Source of the DNA: Tenericutes bacterium HGW-Tenericutes-2
Lineage (GTDB): Bacteria; Bacillota_I; Bacilli_A; Acholeplasmatales; Acholeplasmataceae
Assembly: GCA_002839095.1 (NCBI GenBank)
Contig: PGXL01000007.1
Span: 62,001 to 126,000 of the forward strand
Length of the DNA stretch: 64,000 nt
Direction of reading: 5' to 3'
Numbering within the stretch: the first letter of the stretch is position 1; every line of letters begins with the position of its first letter. The position numbers and the translations under genes are program-made. The notes under the pieces are model-generated. The model had not been told where the DNA came from. It saw only the letters and a list, made by a program, of their open reading frames with translations, and did not search any database. Positions 32,364 to 53,026 of the stretch are shown here, in pieces.

Positions 32364-32433
32364 CTTATTATGATAGTGTTTTTATATAATTTGTGGTATA
32401 GTATATAAGGTTTAAAAAGAATTGAGGAAAAAG

Positions 32434-34182
32434 ATGAATATTTTATTTAGTGATTTACAGATTTTACAAGAAACAAAAACTGCAATTGAGGCATTAGGAT
32501 TGGTTGAAACCACGTCGATACAACACCACGCAATCCCAAAAATGCTAGAGAAAAGGGATTTAATTGGCCAGGCACAGACGGGTACAGGAAAGACATTCGC
32601 TTTCGCAATACCTATCCTAGAACAAATTGACACAGAAGATAAAAACATTCAAGCATTAGTCATTTGTCCTACAAGAGAACTAACGCTACAAGTATATAAG
32701 GAATTTCTTAAGCTAATTAAATTTAACAAGGCTGTTAAGATTACATCAATTTATGGTGGGGAATCTTACAACAAACAATTTAAGGCATTAGCCGAGCATC
32801 CACAAATTGTGGTTGCAACACCAGGTCGTGCAATCGACCATTTAGAAAGAGGAACTCTAAACTTTTCAAGTCTTAAAGTTCTTGTTATGGATGAAGCAGA
32901 TGAAATGCTGAAAATGGGTTTCCAAGAGGATTTAGAGAAACTTCTTAAGGATACTCCATCGACTAGACAGACTGCTTTATTTTCAGCTACTATACCTGCT
33001 TTTATCAAGAAGGTTGCTGAAAAATATCTGAAGAATCCTGAGATTATTAAAATTGAGACACCAACGGTTACCGTATCGAAAATTGATCAATTTTATTACA
33101 ATGTCAAGAAATCTGATAGAGATCAACTAATGCTAAGACTACTAGATTTTTATGAACCAATCTCTGCAATTATATTTGCGAATACAAAGATAGATGTTGA
33201 TAATTTATCAGCATTCCTTCAAAAGCACAATTATGAAGCAGATGCACTTCATGGAGATTTAAAGCAAAGCCAAAGAGACTATGTCATGGGTCGTTTTAGA
33301 TCAAAAAGATTAAAGTACTTGATTGCTACTGACGTTGCAGCAAGAGGACTTGATATCTCACACGTTGACATGATTATCAATTATGAGATTCCTTTCGAAG
33401 ATGAGCTTTATGTTCATAGAATCGGTCGTACAGGAAGAGCAGGAAAAGCAGGTGTTTCTATCTCGCTTGTTTATCCAAGTATGAGAGGTAAGCTTCAAAT
33501 GATCGAAAGATACATCAAGGCGAAGCTTACGGAAAGAGAAATTCCAACTGAAGAAGAAATCAATCAAAGAAGAGAGCAAAGAAATTACGCTCAAATCCTA
33601 GATATGGTTGTTAAAAATGAAGTGAACTACGATGAAATTATCGGAAAACTTCATGAAGATGGCTTTGAGGATCAAGATATCATTTCAGCTCTATTATCTA
33701 AAGTAATGGTTGAAAAGAAAACATACGATCATCTTGAAGCACCAGCTAAAAAGAGAAATGATGCATACTCAGATCCAAGAAGTTCAAGAGACTCACGTGG
33801 TGGAAGATCAGATTCAAGATCAAGAGGACCTAGAGATTCTAGGGATTCAAGAGATTCAAGAGGACCTAAATCAGGTGAATCAAGAGAAAATCGTCCTGCA
33901 AGAACATATGATTCTTCAGAGCCAAGATCAAGAGGAGTAGAAGGTCCTTACAAAAATGCAATGATTAATTTAGGTAAGCAAGATGGACTTCGTCCAGTAG
34001 CACTTCTTGACTATTTGAAGAAAAATGCAGACCTATTTCCAAAGAATATTGGCGATATCACTATCTATCCACAAGAAACAGAATTCCAAATTCATCCAGC
34101 AGCAATTAAGCGTTTAGATGAAGTAAATAACAAGCTCTTCAATGGTAAGAAGATAAAGATTACCATTTTAGGCAACAAATAA
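32434..34182 (+). CDS. DEAD-box ATP-dependent RNA helicase (CshA/DbpA-like)
   Basis: RNA helicase for ribosome assembly or mRNA decay. Q motif near 25 (TTSIQHHAIPKML), Walker A AQTGTGKTFAF near 48, PTRELT near 84, DEAD in LVMDEADEMLKMGF near 154, SATIP near 187, and HRIGRTGRAG near 330. An Arg/Ser/Asp-rich low-complexity linker (residues about 445-500, repeated SRDSRDSRGP) leads to a DbpA-type RNA-binding domain (INLGKQDGLRPVALLDYL...). The start is ATG 32434 with GAGGAAAAAG before it; the TTG at 32422 is rejected. The C-terminal domain suggests rRNA binding. Confidence 0.93.
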   Translation: MNILFSDLQILQETKTAIEALGLVETTSIQHHAIPKMLEKRDLIGQAQTGTGKTFAFAIPILEQIDTEDKNIQALVICPTRELTLQVYKEFLKLIKFNKAVKITSIYGGESYNKQFKALAEHPQIVVATPGRAIDHLERGTLNFSSLKVLVMDEADEMLKMGFQEDLEKLLKDTPSTRQTALFSATIPAFIKKVAEKYLKNPEIIKIETPTVTVSKIDQFYYNVKKSDRDQLMLRLLDFYEPISAIIFANTKIDVDNLSAFLQKHNYEADALHGDLKQSQRDYVMGRFRSKRLKYLIATDVAARGLDISHVDMIINYEIPFEDELYVHRIGRTGRAGKAGVSISLVYPSMRGKLQMIERYIKAKLTEREIPTEEEINQRREQRNYAQILDMVVKNEVNYDEIIGKLHEDGFEDQDIISALLSKVMVEKKTYDHLEAPAKKRNDAYSDPRSSRDSRGGRSDSRSRGPRDSRDSRDSRGPKSGESRENRPARTYDSSEPRSRGVEGPYKNAMINLGKQDGLRPVALLDYLKKNADLFPKNIGDITIYPQETEFQIHPAAIKRLDEVNNKLFNGKKIKITILGNK

Positions 34183-34270: not shown

Positions 34271-35653
34271 ATGGCACATCTGTTTGAAACAATACACAGT
34301 AATTTTTTTAGTGTGCTTTCCTCCCCTAACAAAAAGACATACATCGATTGTATTTTTATTATTTATCATGCTATTGATACGATAGAAGATGCTTTTCAGG
34401 GGGATAGAGAATATATCGTTCAAAGGCTCATTGATTACTTCGATGAAGAACCTGGTGATGAATTCCTCGATGTTGAAGATGATGAACCTGCAAGAACTTC
34501 AAGACAAAAAGCAGTTCATGTGATTAATGTTTTAAAAAAGAATGGATGGCTCGGTGAAGAAGAACTCGGAGATTATAAAACATCCTTAAACCTATTTGAT
34601 TATTCCATACAAATTATAGATATTTTAGAAAGTATTCAAGAGAATCGCCAAAGCGAATATACAGGTGAAATTTTCACTGTGTATTCTCTTTTGACTTCAT
34701 TTGCTATTGAAGAAGGTATTGGTGTTTTAGAGCAAGCCTATCAAAAGACAAATGACATTTTAAGAAAACTAAAATCTTTAAAAGCAAATATTTATAGATA
34801 CTACTACGATATTACTAAAAAGCAATCTAAGCATGATTTAAAGCATTTACTTGAAAAGCTTTTGATTGAATACAAGCAAAACTTCTTTGATTCAGCTTAT
34901 TACAATTTAAAAACAACAGATAGCCTACCAAGATACAAAAGAGCTATATTGGAATCCATCAATAAAATTCAAAATACTGAAGAAACCATGGAAAAATTAG
35001 CAGCAATGGTGATGAAGGTTAAGAGAATTGAGGATTATAATGAAGCCTTCCATTATGTGGAGGATAGACTAAGATATATTACAGATAGCTTTACTGCCTT
35101 AGAGCATTTAATTCTAGCAATTGATAGGAAAAATGAACAGTATATTACAGCTGCAGCTTCAAAGATTATGTTCTTTACGAATCAATCAGATGATATTGAG
35201 GGAATATTCAATCGTTTATTTAGAGTCATCATGTCGAATAAAATCGAAGACTACTCAAGATTGTTTAACATCACACAGGCAAGAAATCTAGACACCTACT
35301 CCTTGTATAATCAAAGAAGAGCAAGAATCGAACCTGTTTCTGAAGAAATATTCTTCGAGGATGATATGATTTCTGATGAATACAGAAAAGAAAAAATCAA
35401 AGCGTTACTTAAAAACAATATTTATGGCAAAAAGGATATCGATGAGCACGTTAAGAACTTGTTAAATGGTGAAAAATCGATTGAGGCTGCTCATATAAAC
35501 CTAGAAACACAGGAAGACTTTATAAAATTAATCTTAATATTCTTATTTTCAAAATCTGTTGGGATGCACTACGACATTGAAATGTTGGGCAAAGAATGTA
35601 AAAACAATGACATAACCTTTCAAAACTTTAGAATTAAAGAGGTGAGACGATGA
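34271..35653 (+). CDS. jetA: JetA/MksF-like kleisin subunit (DUF5716-type)
   Basis: First gene of an SMC-like complex resembling Wadjet JetABC and bacterial MksBEF. The 461-aa, mostly helical protein would be the kleisin (MukF-like) that bridges the SMC heads. It is assigned from operon order and general resemblance to the DUF5716/JetA group (MAHLFETIHSNFFSVLSSPN at the N-terminus, INKIQNTEETMEKLAAMVMKVKRIEDYNEA in the middle), not from a catalytic motif. The start is ATG 34271 with AAAGGAGG upstream. It overlaps the next gene by 4 bp (ATGA). Confidence 0.75.
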   Translation: MAHLFETIHSNFFSVLSSPNKKTYIDCIFIIYHAIDTIEDAFQGDREYIVQRLIDYFDEEPGDEFLDVEDDEPARTSRQKAVHVINVLKKNGWLGEEELGDYKTSLNLFDYSIQIIDILESIQENRQSEYTGEIFTVYSLLTSFAIEEGIGVLEQAYQKTNDILRKLKSLKANIYRYYYDITKKQSKHDLKHLLEKLLIEYKQNFFDSAYYNLKTTDSLPRYKRAILESINKIQNTEETMEKLAAMVMKVKRIEDYNEAFHYVEDRLRYITDSFTALEHLILAIDRKNEQYITAAASKIMFFTNQSDDIEGIFNRLFRVIMSNKIEDYSRLFNITQARNLDTYSLYNQRRARIEPVSEEIFFEDDMISDEYRKEKIKALLKNNIYGKKDIDEHVKNLLNGEKSIEAAHINLETQEDFIKLILIFLFSKSVGMHYDIEMLGKECKNNDITFQNFRIKEVRR

Positions 35654-36288
35654 ATAAAACTCAAGCACTTAAAGCATTTAGTGATGAATACATCATGATG
35701 AAGGAAGGCGAAAAGTCTACCTTTTCCAGAATTGTCAATAAGCTTCTTCAAGTGAATTTTATAACAAAAAGAAAGCCTGGAGACACAAATGATTACCGCT
35801 TTATACTTGCCTTTAAGGAAGTATTTGAAGCATTCTTTGTATTATCAGACTTTACTTTGAATATTAAAAGGGAAGATGAAGTTGTCTACATTCAAAATGA
35901 TAACTTATTCAATCATTTACGCTTAAGAAAAACTGAAAGTGTTTTACTTTTAGTCATTCGTATCATTTACCAACGTAAAAAGGATTTTGTAACACTAGAT
36001 GAAAATGTTGAAATATTCTTAAATGAAATTCATGAGGAATTGACAAGAATTGGATATCTAGATCATAAAAGAATTACAAAAGATAAACTTAAACCTGCAT
36101 TAATATTTTTAAGAAACTATAACATTATCGATTATATCGACAAGGGTCTACATGATGATGCAAGAATCAAGATTTATCCAACGATTCTTTACGTTACCAA
36201 TTTAGACTCTATCAAAGAAATCGTTCAAAAGCTTGAAGGATATATGGAAGGGGGAGGTGAAGACATTGAAGAAACTGACGAAGATTAA
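35650..36288 (+). CDS. jetB: JetB/MksE-like subunit (DUF4194-type)
   Basis: A 212-aa, mostly helical, winged-helix-like protein, the expected KITE (MukE-like) subunit that joins the kleisin. Segments such as RHLRLRKTESVLLLVIRIIYQRKKDF (here NHLRLRKTESVLLLVIRIIY) and LKPALIFLRNYNIIDYID match the DUF4194/JetB style. Start at ATGA overlapping jetA by 4 bp; the end overlaps the start of the SMC gene by about 23 bp. The three genes are therefore translationally coupled, as for subunits made in fixed ratio. Confidence 0.78.
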   Translation: MNKTQALKAFSDEYIMMKEGEKSTFSRIVNKLLQVNFITKRKPGDTNDYRFILAFKEVFEAFFVLSDFTLNIKREDEVVYIQNDNLFNHLRLRKTESVLLLVIRIIYQRKKDFVTLDENVEIFLNEIHEELTRIGYLDHKRITKDKLKPALIFLRNYNIIDYIDKGLHDDARIKIYPTILYVTNLDSIKEIVQKLEGYMEGGGEDIEETDED

Positions 36289-39200
36289 ACTAGTTAACTG
36301 GCATTTGTTTTCTAACCAAACCATAGAAATTAAAGACAATGCATTAATTTCAGGTGAAAATGGATCAGGTAAATCGACTTTACTCGATGCAATGCAGTAT
36401 CTATTCGTAGGTGGAAGAAGCGGATCTAAGTTCAATATCGCAGCAACCGATGATGCAAAGCGTACCCTTGAGGGATATGTAAGAGGAAGAATTGGTGCTG
36501 AAAATAAAGAATATTTAAGAAATGGCGATGTCATTTCTCATTTAGCCTTAGAGTTCTATGATGAACAAAGTAAAAAATACTCTGTGATTGGGGTTATTTT
36601 AGATTTACCTAAATTATCGCAGCTTAAAGAAAGATTTTATCTTTTAGATAATGTCTCTATTCACGATGGTCTATTCCTTGAAAAGAAGTATCCAAGAGAC
36701 TTTAAGAGCATGAAGGCTTACCTAAAGAGCATTGATGTCGAATTTCAGCCATTCGAATCCCAAAAGAAATATCGAGATGCACTCGCTAGATTCTTTGGTA
36801 TGGATGCAACCAAGTATGCGAAAATATTACCAAAAGCACTTGCCTTTCGATCAATTGACCTACAGGCTTTCGTTTTTGAGTTCCTTTTAGATGATGATCC
36901 AATCGATATTCAATCCTTGAAAAACAACGTTGCGCAGCTTAAAAAAGTAGAAGCACAAATTAAAAAGGATAAGGAAAAGCTTGAAAAACTTGATACCATC
37001 ATCAAGCTTGGTGAAGAAATCACCTTAAATAAGGAACAAAAGGATATCAATCAATTAATCGACCAATTAAACTGGGTTGAAAAAAGAGAGTCCTTTATTA
37101 AGGAAAACGAGATTAAACTCACTCAAATAGAGAAAAAGCTTGATTATTTGAGAGATGCTAAGGGTCAAATTGATGATCAAATCGAAGAAACGGATACAGC
37201 AATCTTAAATTTAGAGCGTGCTAAAAACGATTCTGACTTGTCTAGAACATTATCTCAATATCAGGAATCACTTCAAAAGAAAGCGCATGAGTATGAGTCC
37301 CAAAAGGAAGCACTTTCTCAGGTTAAAGAATTGCTTGTAAAGGAATTTAATACGATTAAGGAATTAACCAATCTATTACCAAATCAGGCAATGAAGGCTT
37401 TCGTTTCCTATTTTCAATCCAATGAAGATAGTCTTTCAGCATCAGAGTTGTCTGAAAATTTATCCAATCTAAATACTGAAGTTCAATCCTACTCACAGGC
37501 TTATTTTGCAGAAAAAGAAAGAACTGAAACTGATAAAAGAGAATTATCTGAGCAAATTCGAATATCTCAAAATAGAATCAACCAACTTAAACGTCATGTA
37601 AAAACCTATCCATTCTATGTTGAAAATCTAATCAATGCATTAAATGAAGGTTTATCAAGTCACTATCAAAAGGAAGTTAGAGTTAGACCATTATGTGAAT
37701 TGATTGAAATCTCTGATGAACGTTGGAGAAATGCTGTTGAAGGATTTTTGAACACACAACGCTTTGATATCATTGTTGATCCAAGCTATTTTAATGACGC
37801 ACTTGATATATATGAGCAAGTTAAGGTTGAACAAAAGATTTACGGTGTAGGTCTAGTGAATACTCAAAAATTAACTGCCTATGAGCAATTAACTCCTGGT
37901 ACATTAGCAGATAAAGTTACCAGTGAACATACCTATGCGAGATATTATGTCAATATGTTACTTAACAATACATTTTGTGTAGAAAACGTTCATGACCTAA
38001 AAAACTATAACAGATCAATTACACCAAGCTGCATGACTTACTCTAACCATACAGCACGTCAAATCAACCCTAGAACCTATGAGGTTCCGTTTATAGGGAA
38101 GCAAGCGACTACAATGCAAATGAGTATGGAAGAAAGAAATCTAAGTGCTCTAGAAGCGAAAATGAATAAGATTTATGATCTATCCGATAAAAACGATAAG
38201 ATTATGAAGCTGCTATCGCAAAGTAAGAGTAATCAGCTTGTACACCAAGGCCAAATTAGATACTTTGATTTAATTAAGCAAACAAGAAAAGAATACACTC
38301 AAATCGAAGAACAAATTTTATCACTTGGCAAGGATAAAAATCTTGCTAAGCTTGAAGAGCAAATTGAAAAGGCGAAAGTAAGTCGTAGACAGCTTCGATT
38401 TGATTCGGATAAGCTTGTTGGAGAAATCGCGACGAATCGTGATGAAAGACAACGCATTCTTGATTATATTGAAGAAATCAAGGGGAAACTGGACGAATTT
38501 ACGATTGCACAACGCGTGCTAGCTCAAAAGCATCCAGAAAAATTAAGTCTTGCAAATACACAATTTTATGCACTGAAGATGAGACATAAGCATGATCATG
38601 ATGCGATTAGTCAATACTTGGCACAATCTACAGTATCACTCAATAGCCAAGTGATTAAAGCTGAAGCGGATTTAGTGAACCAAATGAAATTCTATATCAT
38701 AACATTCCATTTTGGTGCAGCTCCTCAAATCGATCATTTAATTTATTTCGAACAAGAAGCACAAATGATTAGAAATAATAATTTAGTTCGTTATGAAAAT
38801 GAAGCTTCAGAATTACGTAGAAATTCAGAAATAGGCTTTAAGGAAGAATTTGTTGGTAAACTTAGAGCAAGTATTGAAAATGCTCAGCAGCAAATATCAG
38901 AGCTTAACTTTGCATTAACGGATAAGACATTCGGATCTGACTCCTATCAATTGATCTATAAGGCAAGTGATAATCCAGATTATAAGCTATACTATGAAAT
39001 CATTATGGGTACAGATGCAATCCATAAGCATACTTTATTTACTGAAGGTTTAACAAAGAAGAATGAGCAAATCTTAATGGAGTTGTTTGATAAGATCGCT
39101 TCCAATGATCCTGAGTATGATATGCTAACCTATAAATTCCTTGACTATAGAAACTACATGAGCTACGATATTGAAGTTACCAATAAGAATGGGAATAAAT

Positions 39201-39541
39201 CCTATTTCTCTAAGGTTTCTAAGGAAAAGAGTGGTGGGGAAACCCAAGTACCATTCTATATCGTTATCGCTGCATCCTTCCAGCAACTTCTAACAAAGAA
39301 TAGACGTGTCGACTCAGGTTGTATCGTTTTATTCGATGAAGCATTCAATAATATGGATGAATCTAGAATTGATGCAATGATGAAGTTTTATAATAGCTTA
39401 AGTATTCAATTATTTATTGCAGTGCCACCTCAACGTGTATCGAATATTATCAATTACGTCAGCACAAGCTTAGTCATTGTTAAGGACAATGATTACGCAA
39501 TTGTTGAAACCTTTAAAGACGAAAGACAAATTCGAGTATAA
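36266..39541 (+). CDS. jetC: JetC/MksB-like SMC-type ATPase
   Basis: A 1,091-aa SMC/MukB-like ATPase. Walker A GENGSGKSTLLDAM is at residue about 27-40; long coiled-coil segments cover about 210-450 and 640-800 with a hinge-like region near 460-600; the ABC signature SKEKSGGETQVPF is near 990 and Walker B CIVLFDEAFNNMD near 1018. The start is TTG 36266 (reading MKKLTKIKLVNWHLF) because GGGAGGTGA sits at correct spacing; the upstream ATG at 36233 lies inside jetB without a site. No jetD nuclease gene follows: a hairpin and pepC come next. Confidence 0.88.
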   Translation: MKKLTKIKLVNWHLFSNQTIEIKDNALISGENGSGKSTLLDAMQYLFVGGRSGSKFNIAATDDAKRTLEGYVRGRIGAENKEYLRNGDVISHLALEFYDEQSKKYSVIGVILDLPKLSQLKERFYLLDNVSIHDGLFLEKKYPRDFKSMKAYLKSIDVEFQPFESQKKYRDALARFFGMDATKYAKILPKALAFRSIDLQAFVFEFLLDDDPIDIQSLKNNVAQLKKVEAQIKKDKEKLEKLDTIIKLGEEITLNKEQKDINQLIDQLNWVEKRESFIKENEIKLTQIEKKLDYLRDAKGQIDDQIEETDTAILNLERAKNDSDLSRTLSQYQESLQKKAHEYESQKEALSQVKELLVKEFNTIKELTNLLPNQAMKAFVSYFQSNEDSLSASELSENLSNLNTEVQSYSQAYFAEKERTETDKRELSEQIRISQNRINQLKRHVKTYPFYVENLINALNEGLSSHYQKEVRVRPLCELIEISDERWRNAVEGFLNTQRFDIIVDPSYFNDALDIYEQVKVEQKIYGVGLVNTQKLTAYEQLTPGTLADKVTSEHTYARYYVNMLLNNTFCVENVHDLKNYNRSITPSCMTYSNHTARQINPRTYEVPFIGKQATTMQMSMEERNLSALEAKMNKIYDLSDKNDKIMKLLSQSKSNQLVHQGQIRYFDLIKQTRKEYTQIEEQILSLGKDKNLAKLEEQIEKAKVSRRQLRFDSDKLVGEIATNRDERQRILDYIEEIKGKLDEFTIAQRVLAQKHPEKLSLANTQFYALKMRHKHDHDAISQYLAQSTVSLNSQVIKAEADLVNQMKFYIITFHFGAAPQIDHLIYFEQEAQMIRNNNLVRYENEASELRRNSEIGFKEEFVGKLRASIENAQQQISELNFALTDKTFGSDSYQLIYKASDNPDYKLYYEIIMGTDAIHKHTLFTEGLTKKNEQILMELFDKIASNDPEYDMLTYKFLDYRNYMSYDIEVTNKNGNKSYFSKVSKEKSGGETQVPFYIVIAASFQQLLTKNRRVDSGCIVLFDEAFNNMDESRIDAMMKFYNSLSIQLFIAVPPQRVSNIINYVSTSLVIVKDNDYAIVETFKDERQIRV

Positions 39542-39544: not shown

Positions 39545-39570
39545 AAAGATGGCCCAATAAGGCCATCTTT
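39545..39570 (+). terminator. Hairpin after jetC
   Basis: AAAGATGGCC, loop CAATAA, GGCCATCTTT: a perfect 10-bp stem with a weak U-run. It closes the jet-like operon and leaves 22 bp before the pepC ATG. A TATAAT at 39537-39542 just before it means it could instead be in the pepC leader. Confidence 0.6.
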
Positions 39571-39592: not shown

Positions 39593-40918
39593 ATGAATAA
39601 AATAAGCTTTGATGATTTAACAAAATATCAGGAAAACTATGATCAGAAACCAGTTCAGAATGCACTGAGAAGAGTGCTAATGAAAAATGAATTATCTACA
39701 CTTTTTGATAAACAGGAACAAAAGAGTTTAACTCAGTTTAAATTTTCAAATGAAATCAAAACATTACCGGTTACCTATCAAAAGCAAAGTGGAAGATGCT
39801 GGATTTTCGCAGGCTTAAATTTATTAAGAGAAATCATAGCAAGCAAATATGATCTCAAAGATTTTGAGCTTTCTCAAAACTATACAGCATTTTATGACAA
39901 GCTAGAAAAGATTAACTATTTCATTGAAATTATGGATGATTTTCTAGAAGTTGATCAAGACGATCGCACGCTTCAGCATATCCTAAAGACAGGCATTCAA
40001 GATGGTGGACAATGGGATATGTTTGTATCCTTAATCGAAAAATATGGAGTTGTTCCTAAGGAATCCATGGTTGAAACTTCATCATCTTCAAGCACTGCAT
40101 TTATGAATAAGCTAATCAATGTGAAGTTAAGATTATATGCTGCAGATGCAAGACGATTAAAGCATGCTGGTAAAGAAAGTGATATACCTAATTTGAAGTC
40201 AAAAACCTTAAATGAACTCTATACATTCTTAACAACTAATTTTGGTGTGCCACCAAAAACATTTGATTTTGAATATGTTGCAAAAGATGAATATCATATT
40301 ATTAAAAATTTAACTCCTCAATTATTCTATAAAGAACATGTTGGCGATATATTAAAGGATTATGTATCAATTATTCATGCACCAACTAAGGATAAACCAT
40401 ATATGAAGACCTATTCAGTCGCTTATCTTGGTAATGTCATTGGTGGCAGAGATATTAAATATTTAAACCTTGAAATGAAGGATTTAAAGGGATTAGTGCT
40501 AAAGCAGCTACTCAATAAGGAACTTGTTTGGTTTGGTGCTGATGTCTCACGCTATGGAGATAAGGTTTCAGGAGTTTGGGATGATGAATCCTATGATTTC
40601 GAAAACATGCTAGAAATGAATTTATTCATGACAAAGGAAGACGAACTAGACTACAGTCAGGGTTCGATGAACCACGCTATGGTAATTACAGCAGTCAATA
40701 TGTCTGATGAAAAGCCAAACCGCTGGAAAATTGAAAACAGCTGGGGAGATGCAAATGGACAAAAGGGCTACTATCTAGCTTCAGACACGTGGTTTGATAG
40801 ATATGTTTATCAAGCGGTTATTCATCAAAAATACTTAACAGAAGAAATGCGTAAAGCATGGAAGAAGGACCCAAAGATTTTAAAGCCATGGGACCCTATG
40901 GGATCTCTTGCAAAATAA
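39593..40918 (+). CDS. pepC: Aminopeptidase C (bleomycin hydrolase family, C1B)
   Basis: Cytoplasmic cysteine aminopeptidase (441 aa), which forms hexamers in relatives. Catalytic Cys is in KQSGRCWIFAGLNLLREI near residue 69, His in GSMNHAMVITAVN near 362, and Asn in WKIENSWGDANGQKGYY near 384. The C-terminus follows the papain-fold end of the family. AAAAGGGGAT precedes the ATG. Stand-alone gene ended by a strong terminator. Confidence 0.95.
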   Translation: MNKISFDDLTKYQENYDQKPVQNALRRVLMKNELSTLFDKQEQKSLTQFKFSNEIKTLPVTYQKQSGRCWIFAGLNLLREIIASKYDLKDFELSQNYTAFYDKLEKINYFIEIMDDFLEVDQDDRTLQHILKTGIQDGGQWDMFVSLIEKYGVVPKESMVETSSSSSTAFMNKLINVKLRLYAADARRLKHAGKESDIPNLKSKTLNELYTFLTTNFGVPPKTFDFEYVAKDEYHIIKNLTPQLFYKEHVGDILKDYVSIIHAPTKDKPYMKTYSVAYLGNVIGGRDIKYLNLEMKDLKGLVLKQLLNKELVWFGADVSRYGDKVSGVWDDESYDFENMLEMNLFMTKEDELDYSQGSMNHAMVITAVNMSDEKPNRWKIENSWGDANGQKGYYLASDTWFDRYVYQAVIHQKYLTEEMRKAWKKDPKILKPWDPMGSLAK

Positions 40919-42861: not shown

Positions 42862-42950
42862 GGAGGAATACTCAAGTGGCTGAAGAGGCAGGCTTGGAAA
42901 GCATGTAGGCTGTAAAAGGCGCAGGGGTTCAAATCCCCTTTCCTCCGCCA
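42862..42950 (+). tRNA. tRNA-Ser (GGA), one mismatch in anticodon stem
   Basis: Class II tRNA: acceptor GGAGGAA / TTCCTCC with encoded GCCA, long variable arm, T arm GGGG TTCAAAT CCCC, anticodon loop TTGGAAA (GGA at 42896-42898). The anticodon stem CAGGC / GCATG has one G-A mismatch; GCCTG would pair fully. It is the last core gene before the mobile island. Confidence 0.85.
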
Positions 42951-43281: not shown

Positions 43282-44940
43282 TTAATAGAATAGAATACCA
43301 TGTGTAGATTGAAACGCTGTCTTTCTAATGTTGTAGGAAACTACACCTGGTAGGTAAAGACTACCTGGGATTTCTATGTTTTCGTAATCGTTCCTCATGC
43401 CTAAAACAAAGATGATTTGATCACGAGATTGAATAATGATTTTTGAGAATAGACTCTTATATGGAAACTCAGATAGCATAGATACTGGCTTTTGATGAGG
43501 TTTCAAGATTTGCTTTATTTCAAGTATAAAAGCATCGACATTCATCTCGGTTATTAGCTTGTTGGTTATCATTGCTTCTGTTATCTTTAGCTCGTACAAG
43601 TCCTTATTGAGTTGAGATAAAACTGTTTGATGAAACTCATCACTTGAATCTTTTATCAGTTCTAGTTTCGATTCTACAGCCTTAATTTTGGCTTGTGTTT
43701 GATTTAAATCGGACTTCGCTTGAATGATTCTGATATCAGAGTTTAAGGCCTCCGTGAGGCTTTTTATGAAGTCGTTTTTGTTTTGAATAATCAGGTTAAT
43801 TTGTTGGATCATCTGCTGATCAATGACATGACACGAGATGGTTTCTGAAATACATTTTTTTTGAAGTTTATTAGAAGAGCACTGTAGATACCGACTTGCA
43901 AACTCACTACCGATCTTGTTAGTCTTCATATTAAAGTTTTTACCACAATGAGGACAGTGTATCAATCCTGTATAAGGTGTTTCTTTACTGAAGGCTACTT
44001 TTAAGTCTTTCTTGTCACTTTTATGATATTTCAGACTTTTTTGCTTTCTTAAAGCTTGAACTTCATCGAACATGTCTATGGATATGATGGCTGGATGAGA
44101 GTTCAATACATAGAATTTGGGTAATGCTCCATTGTTAATAACCTTGTCATTCGATTTGAATGATGGTCTATACGTTTTTTGAAGCATAGCATTCCCTGTA
44201 TATTTTTCATTCTTTAAAATGCCATAGATAGCACTTTTATTCCAGTGTGTGTTACCCAAGGGAGACTTAATGTTGTTATCCTCAAGATACTTGATAATTG
44301 GGGTAGAGCCATATCCTTCAAGAAACATTTCATAGATCTTTTTTACAGTGGAAGCCTCATGTTCGTTGATGATGATGCGACCATGAGAATCATGTTCATA
44401 ACCGAGTACGCGTTTAGTGACCATGTGAAAAATGCCGTTTTCAAATCGTTTGGTATTTCCCCATTTCACATTCTCACTAATCGTTCGTGATTCTTCCTCA
44501 GCCATACCACTTAAGACGGATATAATAAACTCGATTCCTGGATCAAAAGAAGAAATGTTTTCTTTTTCAAAATAGACCTCAATACCGATTCGTTTAAGAT
44601 CTTGAATCGTTTTTAAGCAATCAATTGTGTTTCTGGCAAATCGTGATATTGATTTTGTAAGTATTAAATCGATGAGTCCATGATTAGCAGCAGTGAGCAT
44701 CATATTGAACTGATTTCGTTTCTTCAAGCCAGTGCCACTGATGCCCTCATCTGCATAAACGCCAATGAAATTCCAATTAGGGTTATTAAGTATCTCATTT
44801 GTATAGGTTGAGACTTGGTTTGCAAAACTGTTAAGCTGTGAATCAGAAGCAGTAGATACTCTAGCATAAGCACAAACGTTTTTCTTTTTAGAATTTAGAT
44901 CAAGTCTATCTAGGTTTATAACTTCAATCAATTCGGTCAT
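43282..44940 (-). CDS. Large serine recombinase (second of pair)
   Basis: Site-specific recombinase of 552 aa. The N-terminal resolvase domain has the nucleophile Ser in CAYARVSTASDSQLNSF (residue about 29) and ADEGISGTGLKKRNQF plus LTKSISRFARNT (catalytic Arg residues). A recombinase domain follows (GYEHDSHGRIIINEHEASTVKKIYEMFLEGYG), then a zinc ribbon (LIHCPHCGKNFNM...CSSNKLQKKC) and a C-terminal coiled coil. It overlaps the previous recombinase by 4 bp. Such proteins integrate and excise mobile elements; paired genes occur in SCC-type and related elements. Confidence 0.92.
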   Translation of the reverse strand: MTELIEVINLDRLDLNSKKKNVCAYARVSTASDSQLNSFANQVSTYTNEILNNPNWNFIGVYADEGISGTGLKKRNQFNMMLTAANHGLIDLILTKSISRFARNTIDCLKTIQDLKRIGIEVYFEKENISSFDPGIEFIISVLSGMAEEESRTISENVKWGNTKRFENGIFHMVTKRVLGYEHDSHGRIIINEHEASTVKKIYEMFLEGYGSTPIIKYLEDNNIKSPLGNTHWNKSAIYGILKNEKYTGNAMLQKTYRPSFKSNDKVINNGALPKFYVLNSHPAIISIDMFDEVQALRKQKSLKYHKSDKKDLKVAFSKETPYTGLIHCPHCGKNFNMKTNKIGSEFASRYLQCSSNKLQKKCISETISCHVIDQQMIQQINLIIQNKNDFIKSLTEALNSDIRIIQAKSDLNQTQAKIKAVESKLELIKDSSDEFHQTVLSQLNKDLYELKITEAMITNKLITEMNVDAFILEIKQILKPHQKPVSMLSEFPYKSLFSKIIIQSRDQIIFVLGMRNDYENIEIPGSLYLPGVVSYNIRKTAFQSTHGILFY

Positions 44941-46607
44941 GCAGCTTCACTTCCTAATCTTACAACCTTGTAGTTGATTGAAAATCCTGTCTTATCGTTT
45001 GTAACTGCAGATTCTAGGATTGATGATTTATCACTTGATGATGCATCACCGTTAATGTATATTACAACTTCTGTATTACTGACTTGAACGATTTTCTTGA
45101 TTACCATTTGAAGTGCTTCTCTGCTCAAGTTCATGTCATTCTCTAAGAATGCTTTAAGTTTACTTGTCCTCTCGTTTTGGATATGAAAGGTAGCTAGTTT
45201 ATTTTGCAATTCCATTAAATGTTCCTGGAGTGTTTCAATTTCTTGTTTTTTCATTTCAAATGCTTTGATCAAATACTTATCATTTTGATTACCGGTATCA
45301 GAAATTCTTAAATCAATGAGGGCTCTAATATCATTTTCTTTCGATGCAATTTCAGAGTTTATATCCTTTATTGAATCAAGTATTATTGATGAATCGAAGT
45401 TTTTATTAATAGTTTCTAACAAGTTATTGATTAAAGAAGTTGATGTATAGTTGAGTCTAATTAACGCATCACTACATACCATTTCAAGTGTTTCATTATC
45501 GATTGGTCGATTGTCACATGGAATACGTTCTTTTGATGTGTTTTTACATGTCAAAACCACTCGTTCCTTAGACGTTCCGTAATTGTAATAATTACGATTT
45601 AAAACGCGATTACAACACCCACAAATGACCATACCACTCAATGGAAACTGATTTCCATATCTACTCGAATCGTTGACTTTCGAACGAGTCTTTAAAGTTT
45701 GCTTCACCACTTGGAATAATTCTCTTGAAATGATAGCTTCATGATTATTCTCAATATAATACTGTGGAGCTTGACCCGTATTGATAACCGATTTATGGGT
45801 TAAGTAATCGAGTGTAACGCGCTTTTGAAGTAATACATCACCACAATACTTTTCATTCTTTAAAATGTTCATGATGTTTGCTGGATGCCAAATAACCTCG
45901 TTTCGTCCGTTTTTAATGTTGTTTTCTACCAAGTGCGTTGATATTTCACGGTAAGACATCCCAGAGAGATACAAGTTAAATATCATTTTCACAGTTTTTG
46001 CTTCAACATGATTAATAACTATCTTTCCATTGGCATCTTTATCATATCCAAGAAAACGACTTGTATTGATTCTGATATTGCCATCTTTATACCGTTTTCT
46101 AATACCCCACTTAACATTTTCGCTGATGTTCCTAGCTTCCTCTTGTGCAATCGATGAGAAGATGGTCATCATAAAATCTACTTTAGTATCCTTTGAACTA
46201 ATGTTTTCCTTTTCAAAGAAAACTTCAACATTGATTGCTCTGAGTTCTTGAATGATAGATAAGCAATCGACTGTGTTTCTAGCGAATCTTGATAATGATT
46301 TTACAAGAATTAAATCAATCTTACCCGCTTTTGCATCTTCAATCATTCTTAAAAAGTGAACTCGTTTCTTAGTACCCGTTCCGGATATGCCTTCATCTGC
46401 GTACATATTCACAAATTCCCAATCTTGATTCTCTTTGATTTGTGTAGTGTATTCTTTGATTTGAGCATTATAGGAGTTTAACTGATCCTCTGTGTCAGTA
46501 GAAACTCTCGCATAGGCGCAGACGCGCTTTTTTCTTTTTATAAGATCAGGACGATCAGATGTTAATACTGGGGAAGCATCTATTCTTATAACTTTTCTTT
46601 CATTCAC
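44937..46607 (-). CDS. Large serine recombinase (first of pair)
   Basis: Like its partner but a different protein of about 557 aa: resolvase domain with CAYARVSTDTEDQLNSYNAQI and YADEGISGTGTKKR, LVKSLSRFARNT, recombinase domain FLGYDKDANGKIVINHVEAKTVKMIFNLYLSG, a zinc ribbon (MVICGCCNRVLNR...CKNTSKERIPCDN), coiled coil and C-terminal domain. The start is set at GTG 46607 (reading MNERKVIRID) because GGAGGT lies seven bases before it; an ATG at 46622 and a longer frame to 46664 are less supported. It lies 75 bp after the 49-aa gene. Confidence 0.9.
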   Translation of the reverse strand: MNERKVIRIDASPVLTSDRPDLIKRKKRVCAYARVSTDTEDQLNSYNAQIKEYTTQIKENQDWEFVNMYADEGISGTGTKKRVHFLRMIEDAKAGKIDLILVKSLSRFARNTVDCLSIIQELRAINVEVFFEKENISSKDTKVDFMMTIFSSIAQEEARNISENVKWGIRKRYKDGNIRINTSRFLGYDKDANGKIVINHVEAKTVKMIFNLYLSGMSYREISTHLVENNIKNGRNEVIWHPANIMNILKNEKYCGDVLLQKRVTLDYLTHKSVINTGQAPQYYIENNHEAIISRELFQVVKQTLKTRSKVNDSSRYGNQFPLSGMVICGCCNRVLNRNYYNYGTSKERVVLTCKNTSKERIPCDNRPIDNETLEMVCSDALIRLNYTSTSLINNLLETINKNFDSSIILDSIKDINSEIASKENDIRALIDLRISDTGNQNDKYLIKAFEMKKQEIETLQEHLMELQNKLATFHIQNERTSKLKAFLENDMNLSREALQMVIKKIVQVSNTEVVIYINGDASSSDKSSILESAVTNDKTGFSINYKVVRLGSEAA

Positions 46608-46682
46608 TATGTTGACCTCCATTCTGTCATCACACATATTCGCTCTAAAACAAACTATTATCAAGTCAAATCGATATGGAGT

Positions 46683-46832
46683 TTATTTTGCATAATTCAT
46701 TTGATGTGCTTCAAAAAGAGAAAGTAATGAATCATAGAATTCAATGAATGAAAGTTGACCTTGTTTGTATAGGGTATGTAACATGGTTTTTTTAGTGTGA
46801 TAATCATATAAGTTTTGAGAATCTTGATTCAT
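46683..46832 (-). CDS. Small protein (49 aa) heading the recombinase operon
   Basis: A small gene of 49 aa. It starts MNQDSQNLYDYHTKKTMLHT and ends in FEAHQMNYAK. AAAAGGAG lies six bases before the ATG, which supports real translation. The KKTMLHTLYKQGQLSFIEF part resembles the short SHOCT-like helical motif seen in small proteins near recombinases, but this is only a likeness. It precedes the two serine recombinases on the same strand, so it may be a directionality or accessory factor. Confidence 0.6.
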   Translation of the reverse strand: MNQDSQNLYDYHTKKTMLHTLYKQGQLSFIEFYDSLLSLFEAHQMNYAK

Positions 46833-46851
46833 GAACGCTCCTTTTAAGAAC

Positions 46852-46881
46852 AAAAAATCCTACGCATTGATATACGTAGGA
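46852..46881 (-). terminator. Terminator/attenuator just before the recombinase operon
   Basis: On the minus strand TCCTACG, ten-base loop, CGTAGGA, then TTTTTT. It ends the repressor transcript but lies only about 11 bp before the ribosome site of the 49-aa gene, with no room for a promoter in between. A second small hairpin (GGTCA/TGACC) lies upstream. Confidence 0.75.
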
Positions 46882-46910
46882 CATCTTAGGTCAAATGACC
46901 CATTCACTTT

Positions 46911-46928
46911 TATCGCCATTTCTATTCT
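46911..46928. repeat. 18-bp direct repeat, copy 1
   Basis: CATTCACTTTTATCGCCA, identical to 48461-48478 inside the tyrosine integrase gene. The two copies bracket the repressor and XRE regulator genes. Confidence 0.6.
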
Positions 46929-46971
46929 ATCAAATTCAATAATTTAATGTGACCAACCAGTGTAGACGTTT

Positions 46972-47796
46972 TTAGTAAATTCCTGAAATATTATCTAAAT
47001 CAATAATGACCTTTTTGATTTGACCGAAAAATAAACCTTCAATCTCTTTTAATTTGGCAATTCGTATTTCACCTTCCTGGGTTGAATAATGGAAGTAGTT
47101 ATAGGAATTAAGCAGTTTATCTGAATGCTTTGTTTCTGGATATCTAAAAACAGGACCAACTTTAGTAATGTAGATTCCATCTACACCTTTTAGCATGCAT
47201 GTGATCGTATGATCTAAATCTTTGGTAATGATATCAAAGCTTCGATCGACAATGAGCATTGAGCCTTTTGGAGCGTTCAACGTCATGAGTTCCTGCTGCA
47301 GTTCAACAGCAATAACAGCGTTACTTTTCTCCAACCCTTCATCAAGATGATAATACATGCTATTTTCAGTTTCAATTTCCGTGAGGTAGTCTATTTCCTT
47401 GTATTCACTTATATTTATCGTGTAATCAGAGTAGACATATTTTTTGATTTTATTATCAAATTTATCATTGAAAAAACCTATATCTCTTTTGAGAAGCGCA
47501 TCAGTAGATACATTTAGGTGATTTGCTAGCGCAATAAGGAGTGAAGAGGGGATTTCTCTTTTACCATTTTCATAAGCTGACATACTTGCTTCTGTTGTTT
47601 GAAGCTGAAAGGTATCAATACATTTTTTAACTGTTAATCCTTTAGCTTTTCTATAAGCAGAATCAATACCTTTATATGACCACACTTGCTTATACAAATC
47701 ATGACCAACTTTTATTATATTTTCCATTTGGTCGTTGGCTAGTTTGACTTTCTTTAGCTTATCATTGATTATTTTTTGAGTATCATTTACTGTCAT
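46972..47796 (-). CDS. CI/LexA-like phage repressor
   Basis: A 274-aa regulator. Residues about 40-100 form an XRE-type helix-turn-helix (KCIDTFQLQTTEASMSAYENGKREIPSSLLIALANHLNVS). The C-terminal part (LNAPKGSMLIVDRSFDII...GIYITKVG) resembles the LexA/S24 fold; the Lys of GIYITKV fits the dyad position, but no clear Ser-Met nucleophile is seen, so self-cleavage is doubtful. Divergent from the XRE regulator at 48103, with two inverted-repeat operators between them. Likely keeps the island quiet. AGGAGG precedes the ATG. Confidence 0.8.
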   Translation of the reverse strand: MTVNDTQKIINDKLKKVKLANDQMENIIKVGHDLYKQVWSYKGIDSAYRKAKGLTVKKCIDTFQLQTTEASMSAYENGKREIPSSLLIALANHLNVSTDALLKRDIGFFNDKFDNKIKKYVYSDYTINISEYKEIDYLTEIETENSMYYHLDEGLEKSNAVIAVELQQELMTLNAPKGSMLIVDRSFDIITKDLDHTITCMLKGVDGIYITKVGPVFRYPETKHSDKLLNSYNYFHYSTQEGEIRIAKLKEIEGLFFGQIKKVIIDLDNISGIY

Positions 47797-48102
47797 TGGT
47801 ATTTCCTCCTAATGTATACCATAATTTTAACACACGTATGTCAAACGTGATAAAAATAATGAAAAAAAGACCGAATACATAAACATGTGTTTAAGTTGAT
47901 ATTTACTTGGATTTCCAGTTTGAATGGCTAAATAACGCAGTTTATATGTTCTAATCGTTACCGATAATAATAGTTATCGGGTACTCTATTCATGCAATTA
48001 TCCATGTTTCCAATCAATATTGGATAAAAATGTCATGCGTTAAAATCTAGGTTATCATTAGGTTAACAGTGTTTAACAACATGATAATTAGGAGGATTTT
48101 TA
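47797..48102. promoter_or_regulatory. Divergent operator region between repressor and XRE regulator
   Basis: No gene. It holds three inverted repeats: CACGT-7-ACGTG (47833-47849), CCGATAA-6-TTATCGG (47961-47980), and TCCAAT-4-ATTGGA near 48010-48024. The last ends in TGGATAAAAA. GTTAAC/GTTTAAC repeats and the AGGAGG site of the XRE gene follow. The second repeat recurs before the terminase-like gene. Confidence 0.65.
47961..47980. promoter_or_regulatory. 20-bp inverted-repeat operator, copy 1
   Basis: CCGATAA, six bases, TTATCGG: perfect 7-6-7 repeat. With flanking bases the left half reads AATCGTTACCGATAAT, matching 15 of 16 bases at 51885-51900. Confidence 0.7.
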
Positions 48103-48354
48103 ATGGATTTAAGGATGTATTTAGTAAATGCAAGACAAAGTAAAGGATACTCACAACGAAGAACTGCAAGAGAATCAGGAATATCCTATCAGCACTATGC
48201 CAAGATAGAAAGTGGTGATCGTGGGAAAAAAGTTTCATTTCTAACTATCGGTCGAATAGCGACAGTATTGGGCATATCGCTAGATGATTTATATCAACTT
48301 GAAAAAAGTTATCTTGATGAACTTGAACTTTCCAATGAGTCAAGCAACTATTGA
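48103..48354 (+). CDS. XRE-family transcriptional regulator
   Basis: An 83-aa Cro/CI-type helix-turn-helix protein (LRMYLVNARQSKGYSQRRTA, then ESGISYQHYAKIESGDRGKKVSFLTIGRIATVLGISLDDLY). AGGAGG precedes the ATG. Divergent from the large repressor, so the pair may form a bistable switch such as CI/Cro or Stl/Str. The tyrosine integrase overlaps its end. Confidence 0.9.
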   Translation: MDLRMYLVNARQSKGYSQRRTARESGISYQHYAKIESGDRGKKVSFLTIGRIATVLGISLDDLYQLEKSYLDELELSNESSNY

Positions 48355-49255
48355 TTTTAAGAAGCAAATTGAACTTTATATTCAAAGTTTAGATCTAAAA
48401 GAAATTACAAAGAAATCATATGATGACATTTTACAAAGTTTTTATAGGTACTTGTTAGCACATTCACTTTTATCGCCAAATAAAAAGGATATCTTAGGCT
48501 ATAAGGAATACCTATCAAAGCATGTGAGATCAGCAACGATTCAAAAGACCATTGTTGTCTTAAGGGGTTTCTTTACGTATTTAGATTCAGAAGAGCTCTA
48601 TCGAAACATCATGACTGGTATCAGAGGTGTTTCGATTGAACCAACATTCAAAAGAGCTGCACTCACATTAAGTGAAGTTGAAAAATTGATCAATAAAGCA
48701 AGTGAACTTGCCATATCCATTGAAGGTAAAAGGAACTACGCCATCATCGCATTAATTGCGACGACGGGATTGAGAACTATCGAAGTAGAAAGAGCAAATG
48801 TGAAAGATTTAGTCATGAATAGTGGTGGATACAAACTTTTCATTCAAGGCAAGGGTAAGGATGATAAAGATCTGTATGTAAAAATATCTCGAGATGTTTA
48901 TCAAATTATCATGACGTATTTAATGGATAGAAATGATGATCTTGAACCTTTATTTATTACCCATGGAAGAAATAATTCAAGTGAACGAATCAGAACCAGG
49001 TCTATCAGAGGAATAGTTAAAGAAATATTAAGACAAATCGGTATCGATGATATGAGATATACAGCACATAGTTTAAGACATTCTTTAGCTACCAATTTGA
49101 TACTTCATGGCAATGGAACACTAGAAGAAGCAAAACAGATTTTAAGACATAAGGATATATCAACAACGCAAATTTATAATCACTCACTCGCAAGATCTCA
49201 AAACGATGGTGAGTTGAAAATGAGCAAATTACTATTTAAAGGAAAGGAGCGATAA
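48335..49255 (+). CDS. Tyrosine recombinase / integrase (XerC/D-like)
   Basis: Site-specific recombinase of about 306 aa: N-terminal core-binding domain (SAM-like; ATIDFKKQIELYIQSLDLKEITKKSYDDIL) and catalytic domain with Arg in ATTGLRTIEVERANV, the Lys-containing beta strand GKGKDDKDLYVKI, HSLRHSLATNLI, RHKD and the nucleophile Tyr in TTQIYNHS. The start is uncertain: ATG 48335 or 48317, both overlapping the XRE gene without a clear ribosome site, so coupling is likely. It is a complete set of active-site residues. Confidence 0.9.
   Translation: MSQATIDFKKQIELYIQSLDLKEITKKSYDDILQSFYRYLLAHSLLSPNKKDILGYKEYLSKHVRSATIQKTIVVLRGFFTYLDSEELYRNIMTGIRGVSIEPTFKRAALTLSEVEKLINKASELAISIEGKRNYAIIALIATTGLRTIEVERANVKDLVMNSGGYKLFIQGKGKDDKDLYVKISRDVYQIIMTYLMDRNDDLEPLFITHGRNNSSERIRTRSIRGIVKEILRQIGIDDMRYTAHSLRHSLATNLILHGNGTLEEAKQILRHKDISTTQIYNHSLARSQNDGELKMSKLLFKGKER
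48461..48478. repeat. 18-bp direct repeat, copy 2 (inside integrase gene)
   Basis: CATTCACTTTTATCGCCA, identical to 46911-46928. Confidence 0.6.
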
Positions 49256-49256
49256 C

Positions 49257-49451
49257 ATGAATGATAATGTGGTTTTATATAACGTTAATGACCTTATGAA
49301 GCTGTTAAAAGTGACGAGAGTAACTGTACTCAGATATATTAATCAGAAGAAGATAAGAGCATTTAAAGTGGGTCATAGTTGGTTAGTAACGAAAGACGCA
49401 CTCGATGAATTCATTCGTTTAAGCGAACAGAGTCATGGCTGGAAAACCTAA
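49257..49451 (+). CDS. Excisionase-like helix-turn-helix protein
   Basis: A 64-aa protein of the excisionase/helix-turn-helix family: VNDLMKLLKVTRVTVLRYINQKKIRAFKVGHSWLVTKDALDEFI, the winged-helix pattern of Xis proteins. It lies 1 bp after the integrase with AAAGGAG upstream and overlaps the next gene by 17 bp. Likely directs the integrase toward excision or acts as a regulator. Confidence 0.85.
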   Translation: MNDNVVLYNVNDLMKLLKVTRVTVLRYINQKKIRAFKVGHSWLVTKDALDEFIRLSEQSHGWKT

Positions 49452-50331
49452 ACTAGGACTGGAGTTCTTTTCAGTTGATGTAGATATGAATCGAAACATG
49501 AAAGTAAGAAGATTGATGAGAGAATATGGGACTGAGGGGTATACCATCCTGATGTTCCTTTTGTCTTGGGTCTATGAAAAAGGACAATTTTGGCGATATG
49601 ACAACATTGAAGATGTCATTTTCGGGTTATCTGAATCAACTAATGTGAGTGAAGAACGAATTGAACAGATTATCGATTTTCTAGTTGAGGTAGGTTTGTT
49701 TGATAAAGTTTCATTTAAACTAGGATACTTCACCTCACATGAAATCCAAAGAAGATATTATTACGCAACAAAACGAAGAAAAGTCAGGATTCTTAAAGAG
49801 TGCTGTTTACTAAGCCAAGAAGACATGAACTTGATTGATAGCAAATCTGAATTCAATGATTCAATCCTTGTTAACATAGATACCATTCATGTAAACAAAG
49901 ATGACATGGTTGTAAACAAGCATAGACAAAGTAATAGTAATAGTAAAAGAAAAAAGGATAAAGGAATGATAAATCATGATATTGGATCTGTCGATCCCGC
50001 AACTATTCCATTTAAACTTAATTATTATCTTTTAATTCTAATCAAAAACAATATCGTTACAGGAACAGAAGAATGGATAACCGTATTAAATGACTATCTA
50101 TATACTGTTACAAGCAAGCGGAATAAAGATGATGTTAGAAAGGCAATCTATTACACCATCAAACGCATCAATCACAATCAATGGAAAGATGAACATGGAT
50201 ATGAAATCGTGAATAGAGAACCTTATCTTGAAACAACGATTAATAACAATATCGACTATAACGAATCGGAACCTGAGAGAATTCAAAGGTTAAAAACGTT
50301 TGATTTTATCTTTCATAAAAATACTGAATAA
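49435..50331 (+). CDS. Lin1244/Lin1753-type replication/DnaD-like protein
   Basis: A 298-aa protein. The N-terminus KLGLEFFSVDVDMNRNMKVRRLMREYGTEGYTILMFLLSWVYE matches the Lin1244/Lin1753 (DUF4373) domain common in phage and plasmid replication proteins. The middle is a basic, asparagine/serine-rich linker (KHRQSNSNSKRKKDKG) and the C-terminus is a helical DnaD-like region. It probably helps start replication of the excised element. ATG inside the end of the excisionase gene. Confidence 0.75.
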   Translation: MAGKPKLGLEFFSVDVDMNRNMKVRRLMREYGTEGYTILMFLLSWVYEKGQFWRYDNIEDVIFGLSESTNVSEERIEQIIDFLVEVGLFDKVSFKLGYFTSHEIQRRYYYATKRRKVRILKECCLLSQEDMNLIDSKSEFNDSILVNIDTIHVNKDDMVVNKHRQSNSNSKRKKDKGMINHDIGSVDPATIPFKLNYYLLILIKNNIVTGTEEWITVLNDYLYTVTSKRNKDDVRKAIYYTIKRINHNQWKDEHGYEIVNREPYLETTINNNIDYNESEPERIQRLKTFDFIFHKNTE

Positions 50332-50435
50332 TTATCCACCCCATCACCCAAAATTGAATATCGCAGTTCTACTTATTAGATTTTAATTATAGTACAGTTA
50401 TGATAAAATAAGATGAGACGAAAGGGTGTGGTAAC

Positions 50436-51794: not shown

Positions 51795-51843
51795 TTGATA
51801 ATCCATTAGCTCTAGAAATTAAACTTACATAAGAAAAATTGAC

Positions 51844-51870
51844 AACATCAGGCTAACGCTTGGTGTTTTT
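51844..51870 (+). terminator. Terminator after the AlbA_2 gene
   Basis: AACATCAGGC, loop TAAC, GCTTGGTGTT, then TTT. Ten pairs including two G-U pairs. Confidence 0.7.
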
Positions 51871-51892
51871 ATTTCTCTTATACAAATCATTA

Positions 51893-51912
51893 CCGATAAT
51901 CTATGTTAGCGG
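51893..51912. promoter_or_regulatory. 20-bp inverted-repeat operator, copy 2
   Basis: CCGATAA, TCTATG, TTAGCGG: same 7-6-7 layout as 47961-47980 with one mismatch. The preceding bases AATCATTA also match. Confidence 0.65.
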
Positions 51913-52096
51913 ATGTATGAAACATATCATCAGTGATAACGAGACTATTTATACCGTTCAAAATCAACTAATTACATATCAAGTGATTTATGTGTAAATG
52001 TCGCCACTGGTTGTCTATCTTAAAAAAGGAGTCAAATATATAATTAAGAGGTGAGCAAAGGGTGAGCGACTTACCCCCTCTAAAGGAGCAACCATT

Positions 52097-52955: not shown

Positions 52956-52982
52956 CAGTCTAAAATCGACACAAGATAAAAA

Positions 52983-53026
52983 CAACGCCACTTAAAGGTT
53001 AAATAGCCTTTTTGTGGCGTTTTTAT
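52983..53026 (+). terminator. Terminator after the 122-aa gene
   Basis: AACGCCAC pairs with GTGGCGTT across a long loop, then TTT. Good stem, long loop. Confidence 0.65.

What the first reader, a model, noticed from the sequence alone, without database searches (positions are those of the whole stretch)
34271..39541. JetABC/MksFEB-like SMC operon lacking the JetD nuclease
Seen: three overlapping genes with kleisin-, MukE- and MukB-like features, then a hairpin and pepC. Wadjet systems (JetABCD) cut plasmids through JetD, a topoisomerase-VI-like nuclease; none is present here or in the neighbouring core genes. The operon sits among housekeeping genes rather than in an island. Inference: it may be a chromosome-organising MksBEF condensin, or a Wadjet derivative using an unlinked or different nuclease.
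Basis: partly seen in the sequence, partly recalled or inferred. Interest (0 to 1): 0.6.

Follow-up and report, generated by a model that had tools for sequence, protein, structure and literature searches.

The report
Defence-type condensin that replaced Smc
A three-gene motor complex related to a plasmid-destroying defence system has here lost its DNA-cutting part and is, in nearly the whole bacterial order Acholeplasmatales, the only chromosome-organising complex of its kind left, so it probably took over a basic housekeeping job from the usual Smc machine.

Summary
jetA-jetB-jetC (34271-39541) is an intact type-I JetABC operon. No JetD was found in the 99.9%-complete genome with two profiles. 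In 160 genomes of the order, ScpA and true Smc are absent from every one, while JetC is strong in 132, and 124 of those have no JetD anywhere. The order includes A. laidlawii and most of the reduced, phytoplasma-sized genomes.

In this family the operon keeps the same housekeeping neighbours across genera, evolves under strong purifying selection, and follows a neighbouring gene's divergence. Real JetABCD copies in relatives share no neighbours with each other. In a sister family the JetD-less operon is directly followed by the cell-division gene sepF. A JetC tree and an AU test show that JetD-less copies arose more than once.

Best reading: the operon works as the chromosome condensin in place of Smc-ScpAB, having come from a Wadjet-like ancestor by loss of JetD. 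In kind this resembles Pseudomonas MksBEF, but here it is apparently the sole condensin. That it organises the chromosome is inferred, not shown. Some relatives (family f4, genus g14, about 10 small genomes) seem to have no condensin at all, which cautions against calling it indispensable.

The parts
34271..35653 (+). jetA / mksF: kleisin subunit, 460 aa, ATG with AAGGAGG upstream
   Evidence: PF18982 5.4e-84, PADLOC JetA1 8e-99; sequence
35650..36288 (+). jetB / mksE: KITE subunit, 212 aa, overlaps jetA by 4 nt
   Evidence: PF13835 5e-24, PADLOC JetB1 8e-64
36266..39541 (+). jetC / mksB: SMC-type ATPase, about 1091 aa (first possible start 36233), overlaps jetB
   Evidence: PADLOC JetC1 1073 bits; Walker A GENGSGKS, signature KSGGE, Walker B VLFDEA; family profile matches E. 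coli GF4-3 JetC 8as8 at 2e-63
39545..39570 (+). 10-bp hairpin after the operon, probable terminator with a short T-tract
   Evidence: -16.4 kcal/mol, z -3.4; not called by the simple terminator scan
32422..34182 (+). conserved upstream neighbour: DEAD-box RNA helicase (CshA-like); part of the fixed recX-amidohydrolase-dsbA-helicase-jetABC order
   Evidence: Pfam DEAD, Helicase_C, DbpA; synteny
39593..40918 (+). conserved downstream neighbour pepC (aminopeptidase C); not part of the complex
   Evidence: PF03051 1.6e-152; synteny

Best explanation
The operon encodes a complete SMC complex (kleisin JetA/MksF, KITE JetB/MksE, ATPase JetC/MksB) of the type-I Wadjet lineage that has lost the JetD nuclease. 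It serves as the resident chromosome condensin, doing the work Smc-ScpAB does elsewhere. By homology to JetABC and MukBEF it should form a kleisin-bridged dimer of ATP-driven loop extruders that load on chromosomal DNA, extrude loops, compact the nucleoid and help sister chromosomes separate. Without JetD, completing a loop on a small circle has no cutting outcome. Shown: the subunits, intact ATPase motifs, absence of JetD, Smc and ScpA, conservation, fixed housekeeping context, purifying selection, and separate origin of JetD-less clades. Inferred: loop extrusion, chromosomal role, and replacement of Smc-ScpAB.
For: Subunits and motifs. JetD absent from the own genome and from all but 8 of 160 genomes of the order. 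ScpA in 0 of 160, with the control ringing in 9 of 14 reference genomes. Smc over cut-off in 0 of 160, with 10 of 14 controls over it. JetC strong in 132 of 160. In the class, ScpA+ and JetC+ genomes are almost disjoint: of 43 JetA/JetC genomes outside the order only 11 (families f12, f17) also have ScpA. The locus keeps recX-amidohydrolase-dsbA-cshA-jetABC across genera, while 83 neighbour genes of 16 JetD+ copies show no sharing at all. In family f2 JetD-less jetABC is followed at -22 to +68 nt by sepF (PF04472), in most loci with ileS next downstream. dN/dS is 0.02-0.09 for all three genes, and JetC identity tracks the neighbouring helicase's (rho 0.88). Genomes such as G023 (MO-XQ) carry both a JetD-less copy in the housekeeping locus and a separate jetABCD. 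[quoted passage not shown]
Against: No experiment on any member. Some relatives have neither this complex nor Smc-ScpAB (family f4 except two genomes, genus g14, about 10 of 29 small genomes), so a condensin may be dispensable in this group and necessity cannot be argued from absence alone. JetD-less copies also coexist with ScpA in family f12. ScpB was not searched separately. Most genomes are drafts.
Confidence: 0.8

Rival explanations
1. A Wadjet plasmid-defence system that works with an unlinked or unrelated nuclease.
For: The subunits are type-I Wadjet by profile, and JetC keeps the motifs of an active ATPase.
Against: No JetD in the genome with two profiles. No conserved candidate partner beside the operon in this family. 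Near-universal presence and fixed housekeeping locus are unlike defence genes; true jetABCD copies in relatives sit in unrelated contexts and are rare. Genomes holding both kinds keep them separate.
Confidence: 0.07
2. It organises DNA but is an accessory complex (DNA repair, phage or plasmid silencing by compaction without cutting), and chromosome segregation in these wall-less cells runs largely without a condensin.
For: Some relatives lack JetABC, Smc and ScpA altogether. Pseudomonas tolerates loss of both condensins (PMC7485682).
Against: Retention in 132 of 160 genomes including reduced ones of 0.5-0.8 Mb, strong purifying selection, and linkage to sepF in the sister family suggest a core function.
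Confidence: 0.12
3. The direction is reversed: JetD-less JetABC was the older chromosomal complex in this class, and JetD was gained several times to make Wadjet. (This concerns history; it is compatible with the condensin function.)
For: The tree is unrooted and cannot tell gain from loss. The review leaves the origin of Wadjet open (PMC10586767).
Against: JetD follows JetC at -52 to +39 nt in every JetD+ copy examined, including distant Bacillota and Pseudomonadota plasmids, which fits an old four-gene unit losing its last gene.
Confidence: 0.1

Closest known systems
Pseudomonas aeruginosa MksBEF (JetD/MksG-less Muk-like condensin)
   Same: Kleisin, KITE and MukB-like ATPase, no nuclease; [quoted passage not shown]
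   Different: Pseudomonas also has Smc-ScpAB, and MksBEF is described as typically occurring together with another condensin; here neither Smc nor ScpA is found in the genome or the order
Type I Wadjet / MksBEFG (JetABCD: E. coli GF4-3, P. aeruginosa PA14, C. glutamicum)
   Same: JetA1, JetB1 and JetC1 profiles match full length; the family profile hits the solved JetC of GF4-3 and PA14
   Different: No JetD nuclease; fixed housekeeping context rather than variable loci
MukBEF of Enterobacterales and relatives
   Same: A Muk-type complex that replaced Smc-ScpAB in a lineage (PMC10586767)
   Different: Different clade: the window's JetC gave no MukB family match at E 0.001 in Pfam, and JetC is about 1100 aa against 1482 for solved MukB chains; an independent replacement
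Smc-ScpAB of Bacillus and Mycoplasma
   Same: Presumed function
   Different: Absent from all 160 genomes of the order by ScpA and Smc profiles

Membership tests
Wadjet type I (JetABCD) | JetA, JetB and JetC subunits | tested here: met
   PADLOC JetA1 8e-99, JetB1 8e-64, JetC1 1073 bits
Wadjet type I (JetABCD) | JetD Toprim nuclease, in operon or genome | tested here: not met
   PF09983 and a JetD alignment find nothing in the own genome; PF09983 works in 8 relatives
Wadjet type I (JetABCD) | Restricts circular plasmids | not testable with these tools
   Needs transformation or plasmid-loss assays
MksBEF (nuclease-less Muk-like condensin) | MukB-like ATPase, kleisin and KITE in one operon, no MksG | tested here: met
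MksBEF (nuclease-less Muk-like condensin) | Acts on chromosome organisation or segregation | not testable with these tools
   Only indirect: core conservation, sepF linkage in family f2, absence of Smc
MksBEF (nuclease-less Muk-like condensin) | Usually an additional condensin beside Smc-ScpAB or MukBEF (a common trait, not a strict criterion) | tested here: not met
   ScpA 0/160 and Smc 0/160 over cut-off; the only SbcC_Walker_B match in the own genome is this JetC
Smc-ScpAB | Smc and ScpA homologues | tested here: not met

The most novel reading that the evidence does not exclude
A plasmid-defence SMC complex was domesticated as the chromosomal condensin several times in parallel within one bacterial class. 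Each time it lost its nuclease, and in most lineages it made Smc-ScpAB dispensable, so that Acholeplasma and phytoplasma-like bacteria run their chromosomes on a disarmed defence machine.
Probability: 0.55. Interest if true: 0.8.

Novelty: new variant of a known kind. Interest (0 to 1): 0.62.

Why it matters
Condensins are among the most conserved chromosome machines, and MukBEF is the well-known lineage-wide replacement of Smc-ScpAB. A JetD-less Wadjet core as the only condensin of an order would be another, and independent losses of JetD make the path from defence system to housekeeping machine (or back) testable by comparison. It also offers a candidate answer to a stated gap: a review of phytoplasma genomes calls their chromosome-partitioning repertoire sparse and expects hypothetical proteins to fill it (PMC3322544). 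A practical point: defence-annotation tools would call parts of a core chromosome machine 'Wadjet' in these genomes. A. laidlawii is a culturable species in which to test it. In the open-access papers searched, no statement of this replacement was found, but most subscription journals are not covered.

Tried and rejected
1) JetB N-terminal 'IFDR' motif, reported to contact JetD, as a marker of lost JetD binding: a conserved F is commoner in JetD+ copies (12 of 16) than JetD-less ones (25 of 54), but phylogenetically independent pairs give no signal, and the PDB alignments do not cover that N-terminus. Inconclusive, not used. 2) A conserved fourth gene replacing JetD: none in this family (pepC or ptsI downstream); sepF in f2 is a cell-division protein, not a nuclease. 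3) phmmer of the single JetC against the PDB found nothing; the profile did. 4) Weak Smc hits in the order (best 60 bits against a cut-off of 567) lie mostly in coiled-coil regions or are JetC itself; rejected as Smc. 5) The first AU test had a wrong row list, and the large-set runs with corrected rows did not finish; replaced by a 23-row test.

Full report
What is there. Window 34271-39541 holds jetA, jetB and jetC, overlapping and co-directional, closed by a 10-bp hairpin at 39545-39570 (-16.4 kcal/mol, z -3.4) and followed by pepC. All three match type-I Wadjet profiles over full length. JetC carries intact Walker A, signature and Walker B motifs, and a profile of its family matches the solved JetC of E. 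coli GF4-3 and P. aeruginosa PA14.

Where it comes from. The genome has 2.30 Mb in 52 contigs, 99.9% complete. Nearest JetC proteins are from Acholeplasmataceae. A contig of Peloplasma aerotolerans carries the same jetABC coordinates as G027, which is in the window's genus, so the organism is a Peloplasma-like member of the Acholeplasmataceae (NCBI lineage). G023 has a chromosome of the same length as CP017948.1 (Tenericutes bacterium MO-XQ, 2,067,902 bases). G005 is 1,496,992 bases, and its JetC sits 0.014 from A. laidlawii QMP; the size fits A. laidlawii PG-8A (own knowledge). Genus g11, with genomes of 0.3-0.9 Mb, is taken to be Candidatus Phytoplasma from size and placement only.

JetD is absent. 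PF09983 finds nothing in the own genome, and neither does an alignment of 14 JetD proteins at E up to 10. In the order PF09983 finds JetD in 8 of 160 genomes. In the 16 JetD+ copies examined it directly follows jetC (-52 to +39 nt).

Smc-ScpAB is absent from the order. ScpA: 0 of 160, control ringing in 9 of 14. Smc TIGR02168: 0 of 160 over cut-off, best 60 bits against 567. In the wider class ScpA is found in 117 of 247 genomes, including highly diverged ones in small genomes with TGA-reading frames, so sensitivity is adequate. JetC in the order: strong matches, counted by me as E below 1e-50, in 132 of 160 genomes: all 55 of family f2, all of f3 and f5, 18 of 29 in g11, and all of f1 outside g11 except G021 and the five g14 genomes; plus two of f4. 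Only 8 of the 132 also have JetD.

Class level. Outside the order 43 sampled genomes have JetA or JetC. Thirty-two of them, in families f7, f11, f21, f23 and f24, lack ScpA, and JetD was found in one of those (G223). Eleven, in f12 and f17, have ScpA; several of these carry jetABCD, and f12 genomes carry a JetD-less jetABC, some of them as a second copy. This shows that a JetD-less complex beside Smc-ScpAB exists as a state.

Tree. A JetC tree of 56 proteins (careful, 1101 columns) puts all JetD-less copies of f1, the window's among them, in one clade (100/99). The JetD-less copies of f2, f3, f5, f23 and f24 form another (100/100). Others (f7; f11 with f21; part of f11; f12) lie elsewhere, interleaved with JetD+ copies. 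The JetD label needs 6 changes, and no bootstrap tree has one. Holding the f1 and f2-f24 clades together is rejected (lnL 120 lower, p-AU 4e-54, 23 rows; the grouping was named after a first tree had been seen). So the nuclease-less state arose more than once, even inside the order; the unrooted tree cannot by itself tell loss from gain. JetD+ copies in the order (MO-XQ, f2, f4) fall outside these clades.

Context. In f1 the order recX - amidohydrolase - dsbA - cshA - jetABC, in whole or large part, is shared across genera including A. laidlawii, A. granularum and A. equifetale, with pepC or ptsI downstream. In f2, jetABC mostly lies downstream of ychF and is directly followed by sepF (6 of 6 checked, PF04472 E 3e-8 to 2e-12), in four of the six with ileS next or next but one. 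In f23/f24 it follows dnaK-dnaJ, and in one f7 genome the ribosomal-protein/rpoA genes. By contrast 83 neighbour genes around 16 JetD+ copies show no sharing between any two loci, as expected of defence genes. In the small g11 genome G074 jetA lies about 200 kb or more from jetBC, and other g11 genomes show the same separation, yet both parts are kept.

Selection. dN/dS is 0.02-0.09 for JetA, JetB and JetC in five species pairs (synonymous sites are near saturation in most, so these are rough). JetC identity between genomes follows that of the neighbouring helicase (rho 0.88, 18 genomes). This is vertical inheritance of a functional complex.

Literature. A review states that MukBEF replaced Smc-ScpAB in a gammaproteobacterial ancestor, that P. 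[quoted passage not shown] MksBEF is described as typically occurring with Smc-ScpAB or MukBEF (PMC7485682). For phytoplasmas the partitioning repertoire was called sparse (PMC3322544). A proteome study of three mollicutes including A. laidlawii lists a Smc-like protein in the core proteome (PMC3139596); in A. laidlawii this may be JetC, but the paper does not say so. No paper reporting this replacement was found in the library.

Mechanism. Inferred from homology: a kleisin-linked dimer of SMC motors extrudes loops. In Wadjet, complete extrusion of a small circle triggers JetD; without JetD the same motor compacts and individualises chromosomes. Not shown here.

Main doubt. Family f4 (11 of 13 genomes), genus g14 and about 10 small g11 genomes have neither JetABC nor Smc nor ScpA, and a Walker-B profile finds no MukB-like protein in nearly all of those checked (G148 has a 1028-aa match that was not followed up). 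Condensin may be dispensable in parts of this order, so 'replacement' is well supported by distribution but necessity is unproved.

Verdict. Observation confirmed. Filed as: works like, and fits best as, a nuclease-less MksBEF-type condensin of Wadjet type-I descent. It is not a Wadjet system by the JetD criterion. New is that it appears to be the sole condensin of a whole order and that nuclease-less forms arose repeatedly.

Noticed in passing
window 43282-62243: An element rich in recombinases and defence genes begins about 330 bp after a tRNA-Ser gene (42862-42950) and 3.7 kb downstream of jetC: two large serine recombinases, a tyrosine integrase, an AlbA_2/Schlafen protein, an HKD+Snf2-type helicase with DUF4391, and a type III restriction-modification pair.
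   Followed up: partly
L110, L112, L116, L125, L127, L129 (family f2 jetABC loci): JetD-less jetABC is directly followed by sepF, a cell-division gene, often with ileS downstream: a possible functional link between condensin and division.
   Followed up: partly
G146-G150, G153-G158 (family f4), G081-G085 (g14), G046, G047, G049, G055, G063-G065, G069, G072: Genomes of the same order with no detectable Smc, ScpA, JetA or JetC; they may live without any SMC-type condensin.
   Followed up: partly
L139, L140 (G074 and other g11 genomes): In reduced, phytoplasma-sized genomes jetA is unlinked from jetB-jetC although all are kept.
   Followed up: partly
L146 2732-8324 (NZ_CP143948.1): Agathobacter rectalis plasmid of 252 kb carries jetABC followed by a carbonic anhydrase gene and no jetD beside it: another nuclease-less copy, on a large plasmid in Clostridia.
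   Followed up: no
L083, L085, L087-L090 (family f12): Most of the f12 genomes sampled carry a JetD-less jetABC while keeping ScpA, several of them beside a full jetABCD: a possible intermediate stage.
   Followed up: partly
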